DNA from: a virus
Reading direction: 5' to 3' (one strand)
IMG/VR virus record: IMGVR_UViG_3300047471_000544
Span: 1-55,434 of that record
DNA length: 55,434 nucleotides
The notes below the pieces were generated by a model, which searched no databases, had not been told where the DNA came from, and saw nothing but the letters and a program-made list of their open reading frames with translations. Positions 154 through 55,381 of this stretch are shown piece by piece (positions within the stretch are counted from its first letter, which is position 1; every line of letters begins with the position of its first letter). Both the position numbers and the translations under genes were made by a program.

Positions 154-545
154 GGTCCGTGCTGCCTGAGCGCCTCGAGCGCGGCAGGTTCACCAGCGGC
201 CGGCTGGCGAGCAATAGCTCCTACGGTCCAGAGGGCGCCTTCCGCATCCAGGGGCCATGCGGCGAGGAGCTCACGATCATCGCCAGCAGCGGCCAGTTAA
301 TCGCCGCCCGCGGGTGGGAGCACGTCAGCGTCTCGCTACGACGGCGCAATCCAAACTGGCAGGAAATGTGCTTTGTCAAAGACCTGTTCTGGGACAAGCA
401 CGAGACGGTCGTGCAATTCCATCCCGCTGAATCGGATTACGTCAACAATCACGCGCACTGCCTGCATTTGTGGAAGCACAAAGACGGACACGCGCTGCCG
501 CCGTCGTTGCTGGTCGGCGTCAAGGCGCTTGGAGTGCTGGCATGA
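150..545 (+). CDS. DUF7694-type phage protein
   Basis: 131 aa. The start at 150 is chosen because it overlaps the upstream stop (ATGA); an upstream in-frame ATG at 48 would run deep into the previous gene. The C-terminal two thirds contain the pattern W-E-H-V-S-V-S-L, then P-N-W-Q-E-M-C-F-V-K-D-L-F-W, then V-V-Q-F-H-P and a Y-V-N ... C-L-H-L-W block, which I recognise from the DUF7694 family of small phage proteins. The role is unknown. It sits in an early operon and its stop overlaps the resolvase start. There is no equivalent in front of the second operon copy, where a homing endonuclease occupies that place. Confidence 0.7.
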   Translation: MRSVLPERLERGRFTSGRLASNSSYGPEGAFRIQGPCGEELTIIASSGQLIAARGWEHVSVSLRRRNPNWQEMCFVKDLFWDKHETVVQFHPAESDYVNNHAHCLHLWKHKDGHALPPSLLVGVKALGVLA

Positions 546-1090
546 CCAACGTGCTCGCCCTCGACCTCGCGACCGTCACCGGCTATGCGCGCGGCGTCGT
601 CGGTGGCACGCCCATCGCCGGCTCGGTGCGCTTCGGTACGCGCGAGGCGAGCGACGGTGAGGTATTCGGCCAGGCCATCGGCTGGATGAGCAAGCTGTTG
701 GCGATGCAGGCGCTGCCGGACGTCATCGTGGTCGAGGCCATGCTGCCGCCCGGCGCCAAGGTCGGCGCGACCAATTCCTCGACCCGCGACCGGCTCGCCG
801 GCCTGCACGCCATCGTCCGCGGCGTCGCGCATATCCGCGGCATCAGCGAGATCGCCTGCTATTCGGTCGGCGACATCCGGCATCATTTCATCGGCGAGCG
901 CAGCTTGCGGCGCGCGCAGGCCAAGGCGGCGATCGTCTTGCGCTGCGAGATGCTTGGCTGGCAGGCCGTGGACAATAACGCTGCAGATGCGTTGGCCGCC
1001 TGGTCCTTTGCCTGCTCGCTCATCGATCCGACGCAGGCGCTCAAAGTGTCGCCGCTGTTCAACAAGCAACTGCGGGTGCATGTGCAATGA
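542..1090 (+). CDS. RuvC-like Holliday junction resolvase
   Basis: 182 aa with an RNase H-like fold. Likely catalytic acidic residues are D8 in VLALDLATVTG, E65 in VIVVEAML and D149 in NNAADALA, matching the spacing of RuvC-type endonucleases. Such phage enzymes resolve branched DNA made during replication and recombination before packaging. The start at 542 overlaps the DUF7694 stop and the stop overlaps the next ATG. A close homologue lies at 48778-49329; there the first codons have been replaced by different but synonymous codons next to a homing endonuclease gene. Family call is firm; substrate is inferred. Confidence 0.8.
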   Translation: MTNVLALDLATVTGYARGVVGGTPIAGSVRFGTREASDGEVFGQAIGWMSKLLAMQALPDVIVVEAMLPPGAKVGATNSSTRDRLAGLHAIVRGVAHIRGISEIACYSVGDIRHHFIGERSLRRAQAKAAIVLRCEMLGWQAVDNNAADALAAWSFACSLIDPTQALKVSPLFNKQLRVHVQ

Positions 1091-39153: not shown

Positions 39154-40395
39154 ATGAAGCTCTCCGACAAGACGATCCGCACCCTGGCCTGCCCGGCCGG
39201 CAAGACCGACACGACGTTCTGGGACGAGGGCATCCCCGGCTTCGGGCTCCGCGTCCGCGCCAGCGGCGCCCGGACCTGGACCGTCATGTACGAGGTCGAT
39301 GGCCGGGGGCGGAAGATATCGCTGGGCTCGCCGGCGATCGTTCCCGCGGCCGCGGCGCGCGCCAAGGCCAAGGACATCATGGCGGCCCGCCGGCTCGGCG
39401 GCGACCCGGCCGGCGACAAGACCACCTCCCGTGCCGAGGCGGCCACGACGATCGGCGCCCTGCTGCCGCGGTATCTCGTTTGGAAAGCGCCGCGGCTCAA
39501 GCCGAAGACCGTGCGCGAGACCACCCGCCACCTCAACAAGTGCCTGCGGCCGCTGCACCGCGAACCGATCACCGCCGTGACCCGCGCCATGATCGCCCGG
39601 CGCCTCACCGAGCTCAGCGCGTCCAACGGCTCGGGCGAGGCGACCCGGGCGCGCGCCTCCTGGTCCGCGTTCTTCATGTGGGCATGCCGGGAAGGGCTGA
39701 TCGAGAGCAACCCGGTTGCCTTCACGAATCCGCCGCGCGAGCCCGTCGTCCGCGACCGCGCCGTCACCGATCCCGAGCTCGGCGCCATCTGGCGCGCGCT
39801 CGACGGCGATGACGTGGACGCCGATTATGCGGCCATCGTCCGGCTTCTGATCCTCACCGGCGCGCGGCGCGATGAGATCACCAGCCTGCGGCGCGGCGAG
39901 ATCGATATCGGGGCGGCGTTGATTACCCTGCCGGGCGCCCGCGTCAAGAACAGCCGCGAGCATGTCATCCCGCTCTCGGCGCCGGCGCGCGCCATCCTCG
40001 CGGCCCGGCTGCAGCACCGGCCCGATAGGGATCTGGTGTTCGGCTACGGCGAAGGCCCGTTCTCCGGCTTCGCCAAGGCGAAAAAAGAGCTTGACGCCAA
40101 GCTCGGCCCCGCCGTCGCGCCCTGGCGCCTGCACGACTTCCGGCGCTCGATATCGACCGCCTTGCACGAGCGCTTCGACGTGCCGCCCCATATCGTGGAG
40201 ACCATCCTCGGCCACGTCGGCGGCCACAAGAGCGGCGTGGGCGGCGTCTACAATAAGGCCCTCTACCTCGACCAACGCCGCGCCGCGCTCGAACGGTGGG
40301 CCGCACATGTCATGCAGCTCGCCGGCAACCGAATTGGGCGTCCGCGCCGCGCGGCGCTCGCTGACAACGTCGTCGCGCTCACCACCGGAGTTTGA
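39154..40395 (+). CDS. int: Tyrosine integrase
   Basis: 413 aa. An N-terminal DUF4102-like arm-binding domain (DKTIRTLACPAGKTD, WDEGIPGFGLRV), a core-binding part, and a catalytic domain with R238 (GARRDE), H327-x-x-R330 (LHDFRR), H354 (LGH) and the nucleophile Y366 or Y371. It cuts and joins att sites to integrate or excise the prophage. It lies between the two prophages, so it could belong to either. The upstream gap with repeats is a candidate att/arm region. Confidence 0.88.
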   Translation: MKLSDKTIRTLACPAGKTDTTFWDEGIPGFGLRVRASGARTWTVMYEVDGRGRKISLGSPAIVPAAAARAKAKDIMAARRLGGDPAGDKTTSRAEAATTIGALLPRYLVWKAPRLKPKTVRETTRHLNKCLRPLHREPITAVTRAMIARRLTELSASNGSGEATRARASWSAFFMWACREGLIESNPVAFTNPPREPVVRDRAVTDPELGAIWRALDGDDVDADYAAIVRLLILTGARRDEITSLRRGEIDIGAALITLPGARVKNSREHVIPLSAPARAILAARLQHRPDRDLVFGYGEGPFSGFAKAKKELDAKLGPAVAPWRLHDFRRSISTALHERFDVPPHIVETILGHVGGHKSGVGGVYNKALYLDQRRAALERWAAHVMQLAGNRIGRPRRAALADNVVALTTGV

Positions 40396-41538: not shown

Positions 41539-41851
41539 CGCCGTTCCCCTTCTTCGGCTCGCCGGCGTCGAGGCGCTCCTGCAACGCGCGGATGGTTTCG
41601 ATGACGTTGGTCGAGCGGTTGACGAAGTCGGCGACCTGCTCGCCGGCGATCTTGCTGTGCTCGCGCACGGCGGCGGCGAGCTTGCGCAGCTTCGTGCCGA
41701 TCTCGCCCGCGGCCAGCTCGACCGCCGCTGCCGCTTCCTCGATCTCGTGCGCGGCGGACTCGCCGATTTGATCGACAGCTTGAACAGTGACGCCGGCGAG
41801 CGCCAGCGGGTCACGAGCTCGCGGCGGTATGTAGTCTTGCTCGGTGGTCAT
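41528..41851 (-). CDS. Hypothetical helical protein
   Basis: 107 aa starting MTTEQDYIPPR; the ATG overlaps the methyltransferase stop (ATGA). The middle is an Ala/Glu helix region (HEIEEAAAAVELAAGEIGTKL) that could form a coiled coil. Function unknown. Confidence 0.6.
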   Translation of the reverse strand: MTTEQDYIPPRARDPLALAGVTVQAVDQIGESAAHEIEEAAAAVELAAGEIGTKLRKLAAAVREHSKIAGEQVADFVNRSTNVIETIRALQERLDAGEPKKGNGGDV

Positions 41852-42900
41852 GTGCTCCTCATTGGCTGTTGGAACGTCCGCGCGATATGGCGGGCGAGCG
41901 GCTGCGGTATCTTGGCGATCATGGCCGAGGCGAACTTGCGGGTTTTTCCAATGTGCTGGCGCTTGTCGTCTGCGGTGCGCCGGTATTGCGCGCCCTCGAC
42001 CATGTGACCGAATTCCCGAGCGTTGGCGACATTGAAGCCCACTGCGGACAGGTCGATGCCGGGTTGTTTCAGTCCATCGTCGTATTTTTTGCCCTTCTGG
42101 CCGCCTTGCCGCGTCGGACATGTTGGATCGCGAAACCAGTCGCCAGCGTGTTTCCGCCCATCCGGGTTGCGGCCTTTGCCGCTGGTCGTGTTGTGGGCGA
42201 CGGCGAACCACGAGCCGCCGGTGTTCTTGATGTCCTCGCGCAGCCGTCGCTCAGCGGTGGTATTGAACGCCTGCGCCTTGTAGCCGGGTGTCCCGTAGCC
42301 GTTGAAGTAGATGCCGCCGACTTTGGAGCCAATCGATGCGGATTGAATGATATGCCCTGGAGACCCATTGAATGGGCGCCGGACATAGCCCGGTTTCTCT
42401 GCGTTGTTTGGCTGCCCATTTACAAGCGGAACCTTCGGTTCTCTCAAACGCGATGTGACCGGCATGAGCGCCGGCACGTCGCCCCACAGATAGAACGAGC
42501 CGAAGTTCCAGCGCGCCCGCCCGACCCATTTCTGCGCGCCGCGCACGTTCTCGACGATCATCGGCACATGCCGGCCGGCCGCCTCGCACGCCTCCCGCTG
42601 GATGCGGAAACACGCCTCGAACAGCGTGTTCTCGGGTGGCGGGAGCGCCCTGGCGCGCTTCCACGGCATGGCGCGGTAGCTGTAGGCTTGGCAGGGCGGG
42701 CTGGCCACGATCAGCGCAGCGTCCCGGAACTGGCTCCCGTGCAGTGTGGTCACGTCCTGCAACACGAGCTGGGCCGGATAGCGGTGGTCGCCGTAGACAT
42801 GCCGCTCGATGTCGAAGCCGACCACGTCGTAGCCCTCAGCCAGCAGCGCCTCGGTCCAGCCGCCCAGGCCGCAGAAGAGGTCGATGGCGAGCGGTTTCAT
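41848..42900 (-). CDS. C5 cytosine DNA methyltransferase
   Basis: 350 aa. Motif I DLFCGLGGWTEAL (7-19), motif IV with catalytic Cys in SPPCQ (67-71), motif VI ENVRG (117-121), and a conserved end KFASAMIAKIP. It methylates cytosine, perhaps to shield phage DNA from restriction. The middle 150 residues hold glycine-rich blocks that occur in reversed order in the paralogue at 49551. Its first 145 residues are almost identical to that paralogue. A strong divergent promoter lies 33 bp upstream. Confidence 0.85.
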   Translation of the reverse strand: MKPLAIDLFCGLGGWTEALLAEGYDVVGFDIERHVYGDHRYPAQLVLQDVTTLHGSQFRDAALIVASPPCQAYSYRAMPWKRARALPPPENTLFEACFRIQREACEAAGRHVPMIVENVRGAQKWVGRARWNFGSFYLWGDVPALMPVTSRLREPKVPLVNGQPNNAEKPGYVRRPFNGSPGHIIQSASIGSKVGGIYFNGYGTPGYKAQAFNTTAERRLREDIKNTGGSWFAVAHNTTSGKGRNPDGRKHAGDWFRDPTCPTRQGGQKGKKYDDGLKQPGIDLSAVGFNVANAREFGHMVEGAQYRRTADDKRQHIGKTRKFASAMIAKIPQPLARHIARTFQQPMRST

Positions 42901-47446: not shown

Positions 47447-47620
47447 TTATTTATCCTTCTCTTTAAAGTGCGCGCCCGGCGTAGTCGTTCTGGCCATTGC
47501 TAGCCTTCTGGCCGGGCGCGCGGCGCTTGTGGCGGACAGGTAGTAGCGTGTCAGGTTCATCCGCGGCGAGCGCATCAGGTTTCCACTCATTGTTATTGGT
47601 TGCTTCTTATTTCCACTCAT
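47447..47620 (-). CDS. Possible small leader protein
   Basis: 57 aa, MSGNKKQPITMSGNLMRSP..., basic, ending just before the next leftward start. The ribosome binding site is poor and the stem-loop at 47470-47521 lies within it, so coding is doubtful. The longer frame to 47761 is less likely. Confidence 0.3.
   Translation of the reverse strand: MSGNKKQPITMSGNLMRSPRMNLTRYYLSATSAARPARRLAMARTTTPGAHFKEKDK
47470..47521. repeat. Stem-loop element, copy 2
   Basis: Same 11-bp arms and 30-nt spacing as at 45326-45377, with an unrelated loop. It lies shortly before the first leftward gene (47445). Confidence 0.65.
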
Positions 47621-47939
47621 CGCCACTATTCGCAGCCTATTTGGCGCTGCATTTCCACCAATCAACTTTCGCTCAGGAAAATAAATAGTCAAGGCGGGCG
47701 CGGCGCAGGCGCAGCGGACAGCGCGACTCCGGCGTACTTCGCAGTCGCGGCGCAGAGGCACTATTGCGCGATAATCATTGGAAAATCCGCAACGAGTCAG
47801 TAGCCAAAACGGTCACCAATAATTTTTTTCCGGCCGGAAATGTACCAGCGCGCCCGAGTCTTGACGCCCGCGCAAGATCGGGACCAAGGTGGGCGCTCGC
47901 GAACATTCCCGTCACGACCAAATCAATCAAGCAGGCCGC
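47621..47939 (+). other. Divergent intergenic region of phage B
   Basis: About 320 nt between leftward and rightward operons, without a convincing gene. It should hold the divergent early promoters and operators of phage B, but I cannot point to clear -35/-10 pairs. AT-richer patches lie at 47640-47690 and near 47820. Confidence 0.4.
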
Positions 47940-48803
47940 ATGACCACCGTGCTCGCCCTCGACGTCGCGACCGTGCCGCAGCGCAAACGATATATCTATG
48001 CGCTTTACGCTGGTCGGCAGTTGCTACCTTGTTACGTTGGAATCGGTACCGGCGATCGCATGCATCGCCACCTATCGGAAGCAAAGCGCGCGGATCGAAA
48101 AGAGAGCCGGAAATATCGAGTCCTACGGGCCTGCATCAAACGCGGGATTCCCATAAAGGCGTTCAAACTTGCGTCGAATTTAACCATAGACGAGGCGTGC
48201 GCGTTCGAACGGTTTTTGATCAACGTCTTCGGGCGACGTGACCTTCAAACCGGTTGCCTTTTGAATGCTTGTGCCGGGGGTCTCGGTGTTCGAAACGTGG
48301 CGCCGAGCACAAAGAAGAAATTGGCGGAGGCTGGTCGTCGTCACATGGCGCGACCAGAAATCCAGCAAATGCTCAATGAACGGAAAAACACGCCAGAGGC
48401 GCGCGCTCGTCAGGCGGCAGGGGTTACAGGCAAGAACCCATCCGATGAAGCGCGCGCGAAAATGTCTGACGCGCGACGAAGACGCAATGAGCGATTTCCC
48501 GAAGAGATGCTATGGCGCAGCAGTTTTTTGCATCCTCCCGCCAAGGGCAGCTTCAAGCATTCGGAGGCAACAAAGCATTTAATTGCCGAAGCCTCTCGTG
48601 ATCAATGGAATGACTCGATCATTCGTGAACAACGATCAGCTTTCTTTCGAAACCCACCACCCGAGGTAAAGGCCAAGATTGATGCCGCTCGTTTCGGTCG
48701 CAAGACTACGCTCGGGAAAAGGTGGTCCGCGGAAACGCGTGCTAAAATGTCTGCATCGCAAAAAGAAAGACGAGCAAATGAGCGCGCTGGTATTGGCCAT
48801 TGA
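47940..48803 (+). CDS. GIY-YIG homing endonuclease
   Basis: 287 aa. GIY motif at Y18-I-Y, Y-V-G at 33-35, conserved Arg in the DRMHRHL helix, catalytic E90 (CAFERFLI) and N109 (LLNACAGG). Two NUMOD3-like DNA-binding repeats follow (EARAKMSDARRRR; ETRAKMSASQKER). Its first 12 codons, MTTVLALDVATV, match the start of the resolvase gene of phage A, then the sequence switches to the nuclease. So the gene sits inside the 5' end of the resolvase and borrowed its start. Its base use is less GC-rich than its neighbours. Confidence 0.85.
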   Translation: MTTVLALDVATVPQRKRYIYALYAGRQLLPCYVGIGTGDRMHRHLSEAKRADRKESRKYRVLRACIKRGIPIKAFKLASNLTIDEACAFERFLINVFGRRDLQTGCLLNACAGGLGVRNVAPSTKKKLAEAGRRHMARPEIQQMLNERKNTPEARARQAAGVTGKNPSDEARAKMSDARRRRNERFPEEMLWRSSFLHPPAKGSFKHSEATKHLIAEASRDQWNDSIIREQRSAFFRNPPPEVKAKIDAARFGRKTTLGKRWSAETRAKMSASQKERRANERAGIGH

Positions 48804-49329
48804 TTTAGCGACTGTCACGGGGTGGGCAAGAGGCGTCGTCGGCGGCACACCGATCGCCGGCTCGGTGCGCTTCGGTACGCGCGAGGCCAGCGAAGGCGAG
48901 GTCTTCAGCCAGGCCATCGGTTGGATGAGCAAGGTGCTCCAGATGCAACCGCGGCCGGACGTGATCGTGGTCGAGGCCATGCTGCCGCCCGGCGCCAAGG
49001 TCGGACAAACGAATTCCTCTACGCGCGACCGGCTCGCCGGCCTGCACGCCATCGTCCGCGGCGTCGCGCACATCCGCGGCATCAGCGAGATCGCCTGCTA
49101 TTCGGTCGCCGACATCCGGCAGCATTTCATCGGCGAGCGCAGCCTCAAGCGGGCGCAGGCCAAGGCGGCGATCGTGTTGCGCTGCGAAATGCTCGGCTGG
49201 CAGGCCGTGGACAATAACGCTGCAGACGCGTTGGCCGCGTGGAGCTTTGCTTGTTCCCTGATTGACCCGACACAGGCGCTCAAGGTGTCGCCGCTGTTTA
49301 ACCAGCGATTGCGGGTTCATGTGCAATGA
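48778..49329 (+). CDS. RuvC-like resolvase with rebuilt 5' end
   Basis: 183 aa from the ATG at 48778, which overlaps the end of the homing endonuclease gene by 26 nt. D9 in VLAIDLATVTG, E66 in VIVVEAML and D150 in NNAADALA are kept, so it should be active. Codons 1-19 differ from the phage A gene mostly at silent positions and are AT-richer, while the rest is nearly identical. The stop overlaps the next ATG. Confidence 0.82.
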   Translation: MSALVLAIDLATVTGWARGVVGGTPIAGSVRFGTREASEGEVFSQAIGWMSKVLQMQPRPDVIVVEAMLPPGAKVGQTNSSTRDRLAGLHAIVRGVAHIRGISEIACYSVADIRQHFIGERSLKRAQAKAAIVLRCEMLGWQAVDNNAADALAAWSFACSLIDPTQALKVSPLFNQRLRVHVQ

Positions 49330-50369
49330 CCGAGCGCTACCAATGGACCTATGCCTATGCTCAGCGCAACGAAGGGACTGGGACGAGCCGGCTCGACGAC
49401 TTCCTAGCACTCGGCTGGTTGCCGCACGACAGCCTGGCGAACACCGCACACGAGCAATATGCCGTTCTCGTCGAATGGCTATGCGATTGCCATTGCCCAT
49501 TTCCGCCCAAAGTAGAACGGAACACCGCATCAGGCGCAAAGGGAGCGGCCATGAAGCCGCTCGCCATTGACCTGTTCTGTGGGCTCGGCGGCTGGACCGA
49601 GGCGCTGCTGGCCGAGGGCTTCGACGTGGTGGGCTTCGACATCGAGCGGCACCACTACGGCGACCACCGCTATCCGGCCCAGCTCGTGCTGCAGGACGTG
49701 CTGACGCTGCACGGGAGCCAGTTCCGGGACGCCGCGCTGATCGTGGCGAGCCCGCCCTGCCAGGCCTACAGCTACCGCGCCATGCCGTGGAAGCGCGCCA
49801 GGGCGTTGCCGCCGCCGGACAACAGCCTGTTCGAGGCGTGCTTCCGCATCCAGCGCGAGGCCAGCGAGGCGGCCGGGCGGCACGTCCCGCTCATCGTGGA
49901 GAACGTGCGCGGGGCTCAGAAATGGGTCGGGCGCGCGCGCTGGAACTTCGGCTCGTTCTATCTGTGGGGCGACGTGCCGGCGCTGATGCCGGTGACAATG
50001 CGGCGCGAGGCCACCAAGGCCCCCGGCTGCGCGGCGAATGTGCCCGGCATCGGCTGGACCGGCTTTGCCAATGAAGGCTGGCGCGACCATCACGCCACGA
50101 AGAACGCCGGCGGCTCGTGGTTCGCCATCGCCCACAACACGACCAGCGGCAAGGGGCAAAACCCGGATGGGCGCAAGGTCGGCGGCATTGACTTCAACGG
50201 CTACGGAACGCCCGGCTACAAGGCGCAGGCGTTCAACACCACGGCGCAGAAACGGATTGGCGGCACCCGCAAGTTCGCCTCGGCCATGATCGCCAAGATT
50301 CCCGCCCCGCTCGCCCGCCATATCGCGCGGACGTTCAAAGCAATCCAGCAAGAATGGGAGCGGCCATGA
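49326..50369 (+). CDS. C5 cytosine methyltransferase fused to small early protein
   Basis: 347 aa. Residues 1-75 match the 63-residue protein at 1087, whose stop is missing here; residues 76-347 are a C5 methyltransferase (272 aa) with DLFCGLGGWTEAL, SPPCQ and ENVRG. A GGGAG site before the ATG at 49551 suggests that the enzyme is also made alone. The first 145 residues of the enzyme match the one at 41848, but the middle is shorter and its blocks are in another order. The coding cassette is flanked by 14-bp direct repeats. Confidence 0.85.
   Translation: MTERYQWTYAYAQRNEGTGTSRLDDFLALGWLPHDSLANTAHEQYAVLVEWLCDCHCPFPPKVERNTASGAKGAAMKPLAIDLFCGLGGWTEALLAEGFDVVGFDIERHHYGDHRYPAQLVLQDVLTLHGSQFRDAALIVASPPCQAYSYRAMPWKRARALPPPDNSLFEACFRIQREASEAAGRHVPLIVENVRGAQKWVGRARWNFGSFYLWGDVPALMPVTMRREATKAPGCAANVPGIGWTGFANEGWRDHHATKNAGGSWFAIAHNTTSGKGQNPDGRKVGGIDFNGYGTPGYKAQAFNTTAQKRIGGTRKFASAMIAKIPAPLARHIARTFKAIQQEWERP
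49541..49554 (+). repeat. Cassette-flanking direct repeat, left
   Basis: GGGAGCGGCCATGA, identical to 50356-50369. It provides the ribosome binding site and start of the methyltransferase part. Confidence 0.8.
50356..50369 (+). repeat. Cassette-flanking direct repeat, right
   Basis: Second GGGAGCGGCCATGA. It contains the methyltransferase stop and the ATG of the following gene. Confidence 0.8.
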
Positions 50370-53800: not shown

Positions 53801-55381
53801 GTGCTTGCACCTCAAGCAAAGCGCAGCGCGTATGGCAGGAAGCGCGCCGAGAACGTGATCAGTTTTATCGAGAAGCTGACGGTTCCATCCGGGACCGGGC
53901 AAGGTAAGCCGTTCAAGCTGCAGACTTGGCAGAAGGCGTTCATCAAGGACTGTTACGAGCCGCACATCGGGCGCCGGCGAGCGGTGCGTCGCGCGATCCT
54001 GTCGGTGGCGAGGAAGAACGGCAAGACCGCGCTCATCGCGACCATTGCGCTGGCGCACCTGATCGGTCCCGAGGCGCTCATCAACGGGGAGATTTACTCG
54101 GCCGCCAATGATCGCGACCAGGCGGCGATCGTTTTCAAATTTGCGCGGCAGATTGTCGAGAGCGAGCCTGAGCTGGCCAAAGAGATCGAGATCATCACCT
54201 CGACCAAGACCATGTTCGTGCGACGCACTGGATCGATCTATCGGGCGGTGAGCGCGGAGGCCGGCACCAAGCATGGGTATTTGCCGAGCGTTGTGATCTA
54301 CGACGAGCTGGCGCAGGCCAAGAACCGCAATTTGTACGATGTGCTCGATACCAGTTTCGGCGCCCGCGAAGAGCCGTTGTTCATCGCCATCTCGACGCAG
54401 AGCAATGATCCTGAGCATATCCTCTCAAAGCTGATTGACGACGGTATGGCCGGCGCCGACCCGGCGATCGTCTGCCATCTGCACGCCGCGGCCGAGGGCT
54501 GCGACCTCGACGACGAGGTGCAATGGGCAAAGGCCAATCCGGCGCTCGGCAAGTTCCGCGACCGGGAGGATTTGGTGGCCGCGGTGCGCCAGGCCAAGCG
54601 CATGCCGGCGCACGAGCCCAAAGTCCGCAACCTGTTTTTGAATCAGCGGGTGGCGCCGGTCGCCTCGCTGATCTCGCGCGCCGAGTGGATGTTATGCGTC
54701 GGCGATGCCAGGATCGACGACGGCGAGGAGGTCTATCTATCGCTCGATCTCTCGAGCGTCGTCGACCTCACCGCGCTGATGGTCGGCTCGGTATCTGATC
54801 CGCTGCGCGTCGTGCCGTATTTCTGGAAGCCAACCGACCACCTGACCGAGCATTCCAATCGCGACTTCGGCAGCGGCACGCACCGCTATCAGCAATGGGC
54901 CGAGGCCGGACATCTGCGGCTCTGCCAGGGCAAGACCATCGATCCCGAGACGATCGCGCGGTTCATCGCCGATCTGACGATGCGCTACCGCGTCAAGGGC
55001 CTCGCGTATGACCGCTGGCGCATCAACGATCTGTTGCGCGAGTTCGACCGCGTCGGTCTGCAGGCTTACGAGGACGGCGAGAAGGGCGGCGACGGGTTGC
55101 GCCTCGTCCCTTGGGGACAGGGCTTCAAGGAGATGGGGCCGGCGATCGACGCGCTCGAGCACGTTGTGATGGAGCGCAAGCTCGTCCATCCGGGCAATCC
55201 GATCCTGAATTGGAATTTTGCCAACGCGGTCGCGGTGCTCGACCCGGCCGGCAACCGCAAGCTCGACAAAGACAAGGCGCGGTTTCGGATCGACGGCGCG
55301 GTCGCGCTCGCCATGCTCGCGGGATTGCGGGCACGCGATTGCCGGGCCAAGCCGGTCGATATCGAAAGTTTGATTGGATGA
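53801..55381 (+). CDS. terL: Terminase large subunit (HK97-like)
   Basis: 526 aa, GTG start. Walker A-like S-V-A-R-K-N-G-K-T (about 69-77), Walker B V-V-I-Y-D-E-L-A, motif III-like I-A-I-S-T-Q-S-N, and nuclease Asp residues in Y-L-S-L-D-L-S and near the end R-F-R-I-D-G-A-V-A-L-A-M. This is the Terminase_1 (HK97/P27-partner) family. Its different family from 6044-7315 shows a module swap. Confidence 0.88.
   Translation: MLAPQAKRSAYGRKRAENVISFIEKLTVPSGTGQGKPFKLQTWQKAFIKDCYEPHIGRRRAVRRAILSVARKNGKTALIATIALAHLIGPEALINGEIYSAANDRDQAAIVFKFARQIVESEPELAKEIEIITSTKTMFVRRTGSIYRAVSAEAGTKHGYLPSVVIYDELAQAKNRNLYDVLDTSFGAREEPLFIAISTQSNDPEHILSKLIDDGMAGADPAIVCHLHAAAEGCDLDDEVQWAKANPALGKFRDREDLVAAVRQAKRMPAHEPKVRNLFLNQRVAPVASLISRAEWMLCVGDARIDDGEEVYLSLDLSSVVDLTALMVGSVSDPLRVVPYFWKPTDHLTEHSNRDFGSGTHRYQQWAEAGHLRLCQGKTIDPETIARFIADLTMRYRVKGLAYDRWRINDLLREFDRVGLQAYEDGEKGGDGLRLVPWGQGFKEMGPAIDALEHVVMERKLVHPGNPILNWNFANAVAVLDPAGNRKLDKDKARFRIDGAVALAMLAGLRARDCRAKPVDIESLIG

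What the first reader, a model, noticed from the sequence alone, without database searches (positions are those of the whole stretch)
47940..49329. GIY-YIG homing endonuclease inserted in a RuvC gene, with the target gene's 5' end rebuilt
In phage A the resolvase starts MTNVLALDLATV-TGYA. In phage B the same start (MTTVLALDVATV, nearly the same DNA) runs straight into a GIY-YIG nuclease, and a second resolvase start lies at the nuclease's 3' end. That second start encodes the same protein in different, AT-richer codons for about 19 codons; after this the DNA is nearly identical to phage A again. So the element brought its own recoded copy of the target's beginning. It keeps the resolvase intact and would destroy the cut site in cis. 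The insertion point is visible to the base, just after GCGACCGT.
Basis: partly seen in the sequence, partly recalled or inferred. Interest (0 to 1): 0.8.

Follow-up and report, generated by a model that had tools for sequence, protein, structure and literature searches.

The report
Nuclease gene inside a rebuilt gene
In a bacterial virus, a DNA-cutting (homing-type) gene sits inside the start of a DNA-repair gene and carries a differently spelled replacement for the start it displaced; a related virus has an unrelated gene at the same spot with its own respelled replacement, so the spot looks like a recurrent break-and-repair site.

Summary
At 47940 a 35-nt stub of the ruvC start (12 codons, including the catalytic Asp) runs into a GIY-YIG/NUMOD3 endonuclease. 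At its 3' end ruvC restarts (48778) with codons 2-17 respelled, then returns to the phage A sequence. A second phage (L008) has the same insert: nuclease plus respelled tract are 98% identical between the two, then identity drops to 88.6% at codon 24, so they travel as one unit.

The interpretation needs widening. Of 11 distinct close relatives only two carry the nuclease. A third (L029) has an unrelated MT-A70 DNA methyltransferase joined to the same stub within one base, also followed by a silently respelled ruvC start. Two cargo-free relatives (L010, L013) have respelled starts too. Respelling is therefore not private to the nuclease; it most simply marks repair of breaks near codon 12 from divergent phages, with starts that might also resist re-cutting.

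Known parallels: fungal mitochondrial elements (endonuclease plus divergent copy of the target's 3' end) and T4 intronless homing. I found no report of this at a gene's 5' end in a phage, though the library is partial. Cleavage is untested. The window appears to hold two tandem prophages.

The parts
542..1090 (+). Unbroken (empty-site) ruvC-like resolvase of prophage A, canonical start
   Evidence: PHROG RuvC-like resolvase 2.9e-7; codon table
47940..47974 (+). ruvC stub: first 35 nt (12 codons) of a canonical ruvC, now the start of the nuclease ORF
   Evidence: 94.6% identical to 540-576 of phage A; codon table
47940..48803 (+). GIY-YIG / NUMOD3 homing-type endonuclease ORF, 287 aa, fused to the stub; codon 12 (GTG) could be its older start
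   Evidence: Pfam and PHROG matches; active-site residues; 98.4% DNA identity to L008
48778..48848 (+). Replacement, differently spelled start of ruvC (codons 2-17 respelled; tract shared with L008 up to about codon 24)
   Evidence: Codon table; change point at 48849 between B and L008
48778..49329 (+). Complete ruvC-like resolvase of prophage B, 183 aa
   Evidence: PHROG RuvC-like resolvase 6e-10; 92% identical to phage A protein

Best explanation
A free-standing GIY-YIG homing endonuclease probably cuts the conserved catalytic-motif DNA of ruvC near codon 12 (core probably codons 7-12). Repair copies in a block from another phage in the same cell: the nuclease gene plus the beginning of that phage's own, differently spelled ruvC. 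On the right the join is by homology inside ruvC (about codons 17-24). On the left, where these phages share little beyond the ruvC start, the broken end itself (...GCGACCGT) is joined to about the first codon of the incoming gene. The result is stub, cargo, respelled start: the cargo uses ruvC's start codon, and ruvC stays whole with a start that no longer matches the stub. Shown: anatomy, block transfer with a sharp right edge, presence and absence among relatives, the same junction with another cargo. Inferred: cleavage by this enzyme, a break at the junction, resistance of respelled starts, homing in vivo.
For: Nuclease family and active-site residues. Same insert in a second phage; nuclease 98.4% and respelled tract 97.2% identical but ruvC body 88.6%, change point at 48849, p=6e-14. 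B's nearest ruvC body is A, L008's is L009. Empty sites in eight of 11 alleles, including L010 which shares B's leader at 92.7% over 454 bp and runs unbroken into ruvC. The junction lies inside the most conserved motif of the protein. A methyltransferase is joined to the same stub within one base in L029, with a silently respelled ruvC start. Phage B encodes RecE and RecT.
Against: No cleavage data. Only two nuclease carriers and one methyltransferase case are known. Respelled starts occur without cargo (L010, L013). If the tandem prophages are real, phage A keeps a canonical ruvC 47 kb from the nuclease gene, so the enzyme must be silent there, inactive, or unable to cut A. The GIY-YIG Pfam hit is only at its cut-off.
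Confidence: 0.55

Rival explanations
1. Ordinary phage mosaicism. The boundary just upstream of ruvC is a hot spot for gene exchange. RecE/RecT-type recombination joined cargo-plus-ruvC blocks from divergent phages to the resident ruvC start with no site-specific break; the nuclease is simply one of several cargos and in-frame joins survived selection.
For: Almost every close relative has a different gene in front of ruvC: DUF7694 protein, HNH endonuclease, MT-A70 methyltransferase, gene U and others. The first 20 codons of ruvC are among the most silently divergent parts even among alleles without inserts (0.35-0.49). B carries another fusion with a methyltransferase just after ruvC (49326-50369). 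Phage B has RecE and RecT.
Against: Two unrelated cargos are joined within one base of each other (about 0.5% by chance over the gene, 5% over its first 20 codons), and the point lies in the catalytic motif rather than at the gene edge. Other upstream cargos (A, L026) begin at the ruvC start codon and leave no stub.
Confidence: 0.33
2. The respelled start is not foreign but was tuned after insertion for translation: an AT-richer start within the nuclease 3' end helps ribosomes begin, and it avoids a direct repeat that would delete the insert.
For: Starts of 20 ORFs in this window are slightly AT-richer than their bodies (56% against 61% GC). Stub and new start share at most 5 consecutive bases in B, 8 in L008, 9 in L029.
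Against: The changes form a compact block that ends abruptly and is nearly identical in two phages whose ruvC bodies differ by 11%. L010 and L013 have respelled starts without an insert, and most relatives keep GC-rich starts.
Confidence: 0.08
3. The insert is a group I intron or similar element with the nuclease in frame with the upstream exon, and the stub is spliced back onto ruvC.
For: The nuclease is in frame with the stub, as in many intron-encoded nucleases.
Against: No intron family matches at E up to 1 in 47600-49400; ruvC already has a complete second start, so splicing would be unnecessary.
Confidence: 0.03

Closest known systems
Fungal mitochondrial mobile endonuclease ORFs with a duplicated gene end (Allomyces and Glomus atp6, Glomus atp9, cox2, nad3; PMC3630166)
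   Same: Endonuclease ORF inserted in a protein gene together with a divergent copy of the gene end that it displaced; the foreign end replaces the native one in the expressed gene; in Glomus atp9 the nuclease is GIY-YIG
   Different: There the carboxy-terminal end is resupplied and the native end is left downstream. Here the 5' end is resupplied, the native start remains upstream as a stub, and the nuclease takes over its start codon. Phage, not mitochondrion.
T4 Seg and Mob free-standing endonucleases, intronless homing (PMC2988022)
   Same: Free-standing GIY-YIG nuclease next to a conserved DNA-metabolism gene; transfer with co-conversion of neighbouring DNA
   Different: Seg genes lie between genes and typically cut hundreds or thousands of bases away; here the nuclease is inside the coding start with a target-gene stub at its front.
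mobE insertion splitting nrdA in phage Aeh1 (PMC2988022)
   Same: Homing gene inside a conserved phage gene that keeps its function
   Different: There the protein is made in two pieces; here the full protein is restored by a second start.
Engineered home-and-rescue gene drives (PMC7968924)
   Same: Nuclease inserted in a target gene together with a recoded rescue of that gene (analogy only)
   Different: Engineered, CRISPR-based, in insects; no common descent implied. Here the recoding is natural divergence and resistance is untested.

Membership tests
GIY-YIG homing endonuclease | GIY-YIG domain with its active-site residues | tested here: met
   Pfam LEM-3_GIY-YIG 5.2e-6 (at cut-off), PHROG homing endonuclease 2e-15; Y20, Y32, G34, R40, E90, N109 invariant with two phage relatives
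GIY-YIG homing endonuclease | Modular DNA-binding region such as NUMOD repeats | tested here: met
   NUMOD3 2.2e-7
GIY-YIG homing endonuclease | Gene present in some and absent from other closely related genomes at one site | tested here: met
   2 of 11 distinct close alleles
GIY-YIG homing endonuclease | Transfer with co-converted flanking sequence | tested here: met
   Shared block of nuclease plus ruvC start in divergent ruvC bodies, edge at codon 24; inferred from two sequences, not observed in a cross
GIY-YIG homing endonuclease | Site-specific cleavage of the empty allele | not testable with these tools
   Needs purified enzyme
Intronless homing of the T4 Seg type | Gene lies between genes, away from its cut site | tested here: inconclusive
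   It lies inside the ruvC coding start; the cut site is unknown
Fungal endonuclease element with duplicated gene end | Divergent copy of the target gene's end carried with the nuclease | tested here: met
   Respelled 5' end travels with the nuclease
Fungal endonuclease element with duplicated gene end | The copied end is the carboxy-terminal (3') end | tested here: not met
   Here it is the 5' end; so it works like these elements but is not filed as one
Group I intron with nuclease ORF | Intron core structure at the insertion | tested here: not met
   No Rfam intron match at E up to 1 over 47600-49400

The most novel reading that the evidence does not exclude
A site-specific break at ruvC codon 12 acts as a common landing site in this phage group: whatever gene lies in front of a resistant, respelled ruvC in the donor (a GIY-YIG nuclease, an MT-A70 methyltransferase) is carried in and expressed from the stub, while cargo-free respelled alleles persist as natural resistance. 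This would be a natural counterpart of home-and-rescue drives and their resistance alleles, including passengers that are not nucleases.
Probability: 0.35. Interest if true: 0.72.

Novelty: new variant of a known kind. Interest (0 to 1): 0.57.

Why it matters
If true, it shows how a homing gene can invade the coding sequence of a conserved gene without intron or intein and without breaking it, by bringing a differently spelled start. It offers putatively sensitive and resistant alleles of one target in one phage group, so the arms race between a homing gene and silent resistance changes could be tested with short DNA substrates. The methyltransferase at the same junction suggests that homing breaks may also move unrelated genes.

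Tried and rejected
Intron: no Rfam match. Structure of the nuclease: AlphaFold with two sequences gave pLDDT 45, not used. No relative of the nuclease in plasmids, in solved structures, or in 397 sampled genomes of one bacterial order (no positive control there, so weak). No close ruvC relative in 392 genomes of the family of a Bradyrhizobium genome. Gene U, upstream of ruvC in several relatives, starts MTD[IV]LALA like ruvC; considered as an older stub capture, but a distant relative starts differently and seven residues are too few. Single-gene tree of ruvC bodies unresolved. Respelling as pure start tuning: starts in this window are only slightly AT-richer than gene bodies, so at most a partial cause. 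A CNNNG motif (the preference I remember for I-TevI) lies at the junction but also in respelled starts, so it was not used. Several family-search calls failed on wrong frames and were repeated.

Full report
WHAT IS THERE. The window is a 55,434-bp virus record that reads as two tandem prophages. Prophage A covers about 1-39 kb (ruvC 542-1090, helicase, antiterminator, terminase, head, tail, endolysin). Prophage B runs from an integrase (39154-40395) through RecT and RecE on the minus strand to its own ruvC operon and a different terminase at 53801-55381. An assembly chimera is not excluded. In A, ruvC is unbroken. In B, the first 35 nt of ruvC (47940-47974) run into a 287-aa ORF with GIY-YIG and NUMOD3 domains, and a complete ruvC starts again at 48778, overlapping the nuclease stop by 26 nt. 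The GIY-YIG active-site residues are present. The GIY-YIG Pfam hit only reaches its cut-off; the PHROG 'homing endonuclease' match (2e-15) and NUMOD3 support it.

THE RESPELLED START. Against phage A, codons 2-17 of B's second start are respelled, and from codon 18 the DNA is nearly the same again. Of same-residue codons in the first 20, 10 of 16 differ, against 33/142 in the rest of ruvC (p=0.002) and 11/53 in the first 20 codons of the next three genes of the same two phages (p=0.004). The stub and the second start share at most 5 consecutive bases.

THE UNIT MOVES. One other IMG/VR contig (L008, 3300047508_000187) has the same insert at the same base. Between B and L008 the nuclease is 98.4% identical (13/803 differences), the respelled tract 97.2% (2/71), the stub 91.4% (3/35) and the ruvC body 88.6% (55/481). 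A one-change-point fit puts the edge at 48849 (codon 24); Fisher p=6e-14 for the two sides. Upstream of the start codon the two are largely different, but L008's contig begins only 98 bp upstream and has a 20-bp match to B's leader. A nuclease better conserved than its neighbours, in ruvC bodies that are not each other's nearest relatives (B's nearest is A, L008's is L009), indicates transfer of nuclease plus new start as one block. The ruvC tree itself is unresolved.

EMPTY AND OTHER SITES. Eleven distinct close ruvC alleles were found. Two carry the nuclease and eight have no stub. The eleventh, L029 (3300046788_000246), was the surprise: a ruvC start identical to phage A over 36 nt runs into an MT-A70 DNA methyltransferase (Pfam 5.8e-25), followed by a ruvC whose first 12 codons encode exactly the same residues with 10 silent base changes, all in codons 3-9. 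The left junction is within one base of B's. In a distant relative (L042) the same methyltransferase family stands upstream of ruvC with its own start, ATG CTG CCG GCA, so both cargos join the stub at about their own first codons. L010 has B's leader (92.7% over 454 bp) running unbroken into ruvC, with codons 7-22 respelled and no cargo; L013/L014 have codons 5-13 respelled and no cargo. All these respelled alleles share changes in codons 7-9, just before the junction. Among 78 distinct ruvC loci no further stub was found.

MECHANISM. The parts fit repair of a break near codon 12. The right side is joined by homology within ruvC, which carries in the donor's differently spelled start. The left side, where the phages' upstream DNA is unlike, is joined at the broken end, leaving the stub. 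The junction interrupts the first catalytic Asp motif, among the most conserved stretches of the protein, so the gene can be kept only if a new start comes with the cargo. RecE/RecT in phage B suit short-homology repair. Shown: anatomy, block transfer, empty sites, same junction with another cargo. Inferred: that this nuclease makes the break, that the break lies at the junction, and that respelled starts resist it.

ALTERNATIVES. The region upstream of ruvC is generally a hot spot for gene exchange in these phages, and B has another fusion just downstream (49326-50369), so recombination without any nuclease could produce such joins. Two unrelated cargos joined within one base of each other is about 0.5% by chance over the whole gene, or 5% over its first 20 codons: suggestive, not decisive. 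Translation-start tuning may favour AT-richer starts slightly (56% against 61% GC). If the tandem prophages are real, the canonical ruvC of A persists 47 kb from B's nuclease gene, so the enzyme is silent there, inactive, or does not cut A.

KNOWN PARALLELS. Fungal mitochondrial endonuclease ORFs that carry a divergent copy of the target's 3' end (PMC3630166) are the closest architecture. T4 intronless homing with co-conversion, and the homing-gene insertion splitting nrdA in phage Aeh1 (PMC2988022), are the closest phage cases. I found no description of a phage element that resupplies the 5' end and takes over the target's start codon; the library holds only part of the literature. I rate it a new variant of a known kind.

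Noticed in passing
L029:2357-2995: MT-A70 DNA methyltransferase fused to a 12-codon ruvC stub at the same position as the nuclease in the window, followed by a silently respelled ruvC start.
   Followed up: yes
window 49326-50369 and 41848-42900 (minus strand): The small gene after ruvC is fused in B to a DNA methyltransferase (A has only a 63-aa ORF, 1087-1278); a second copy of this methyltransferase, about 90% identical in DNA over its first part, lies on the other strand 7 kb away.
   Followed up: partly
window 1-55434: Two related prophages appear to lie in tandem, with different terminases and a canonical ruvC in A about 47 kb from B's nuclease gene.
   Followed up: partly
L026:2360-2995 (also L027, L028): An HNH endonuclease lies directly before a ruvC with a GTG start and leaves no stub: a second kind of homing-type nuclease at the same gene boundary.
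   Followed up: partly
L029:2154-2360, L011 3789-3995, L013 3789-3995: Gene U, just upstream of ruvC, starts MTD[IV]LALA, close to the ruvC start; possibly an older stub capture or coincidence.
   Followed up: partly
ruvC codons 140-160 across the close family: A second peak of silent divergence (0.47-0.49), as high as in the first 20 codons.
   Followed up: no
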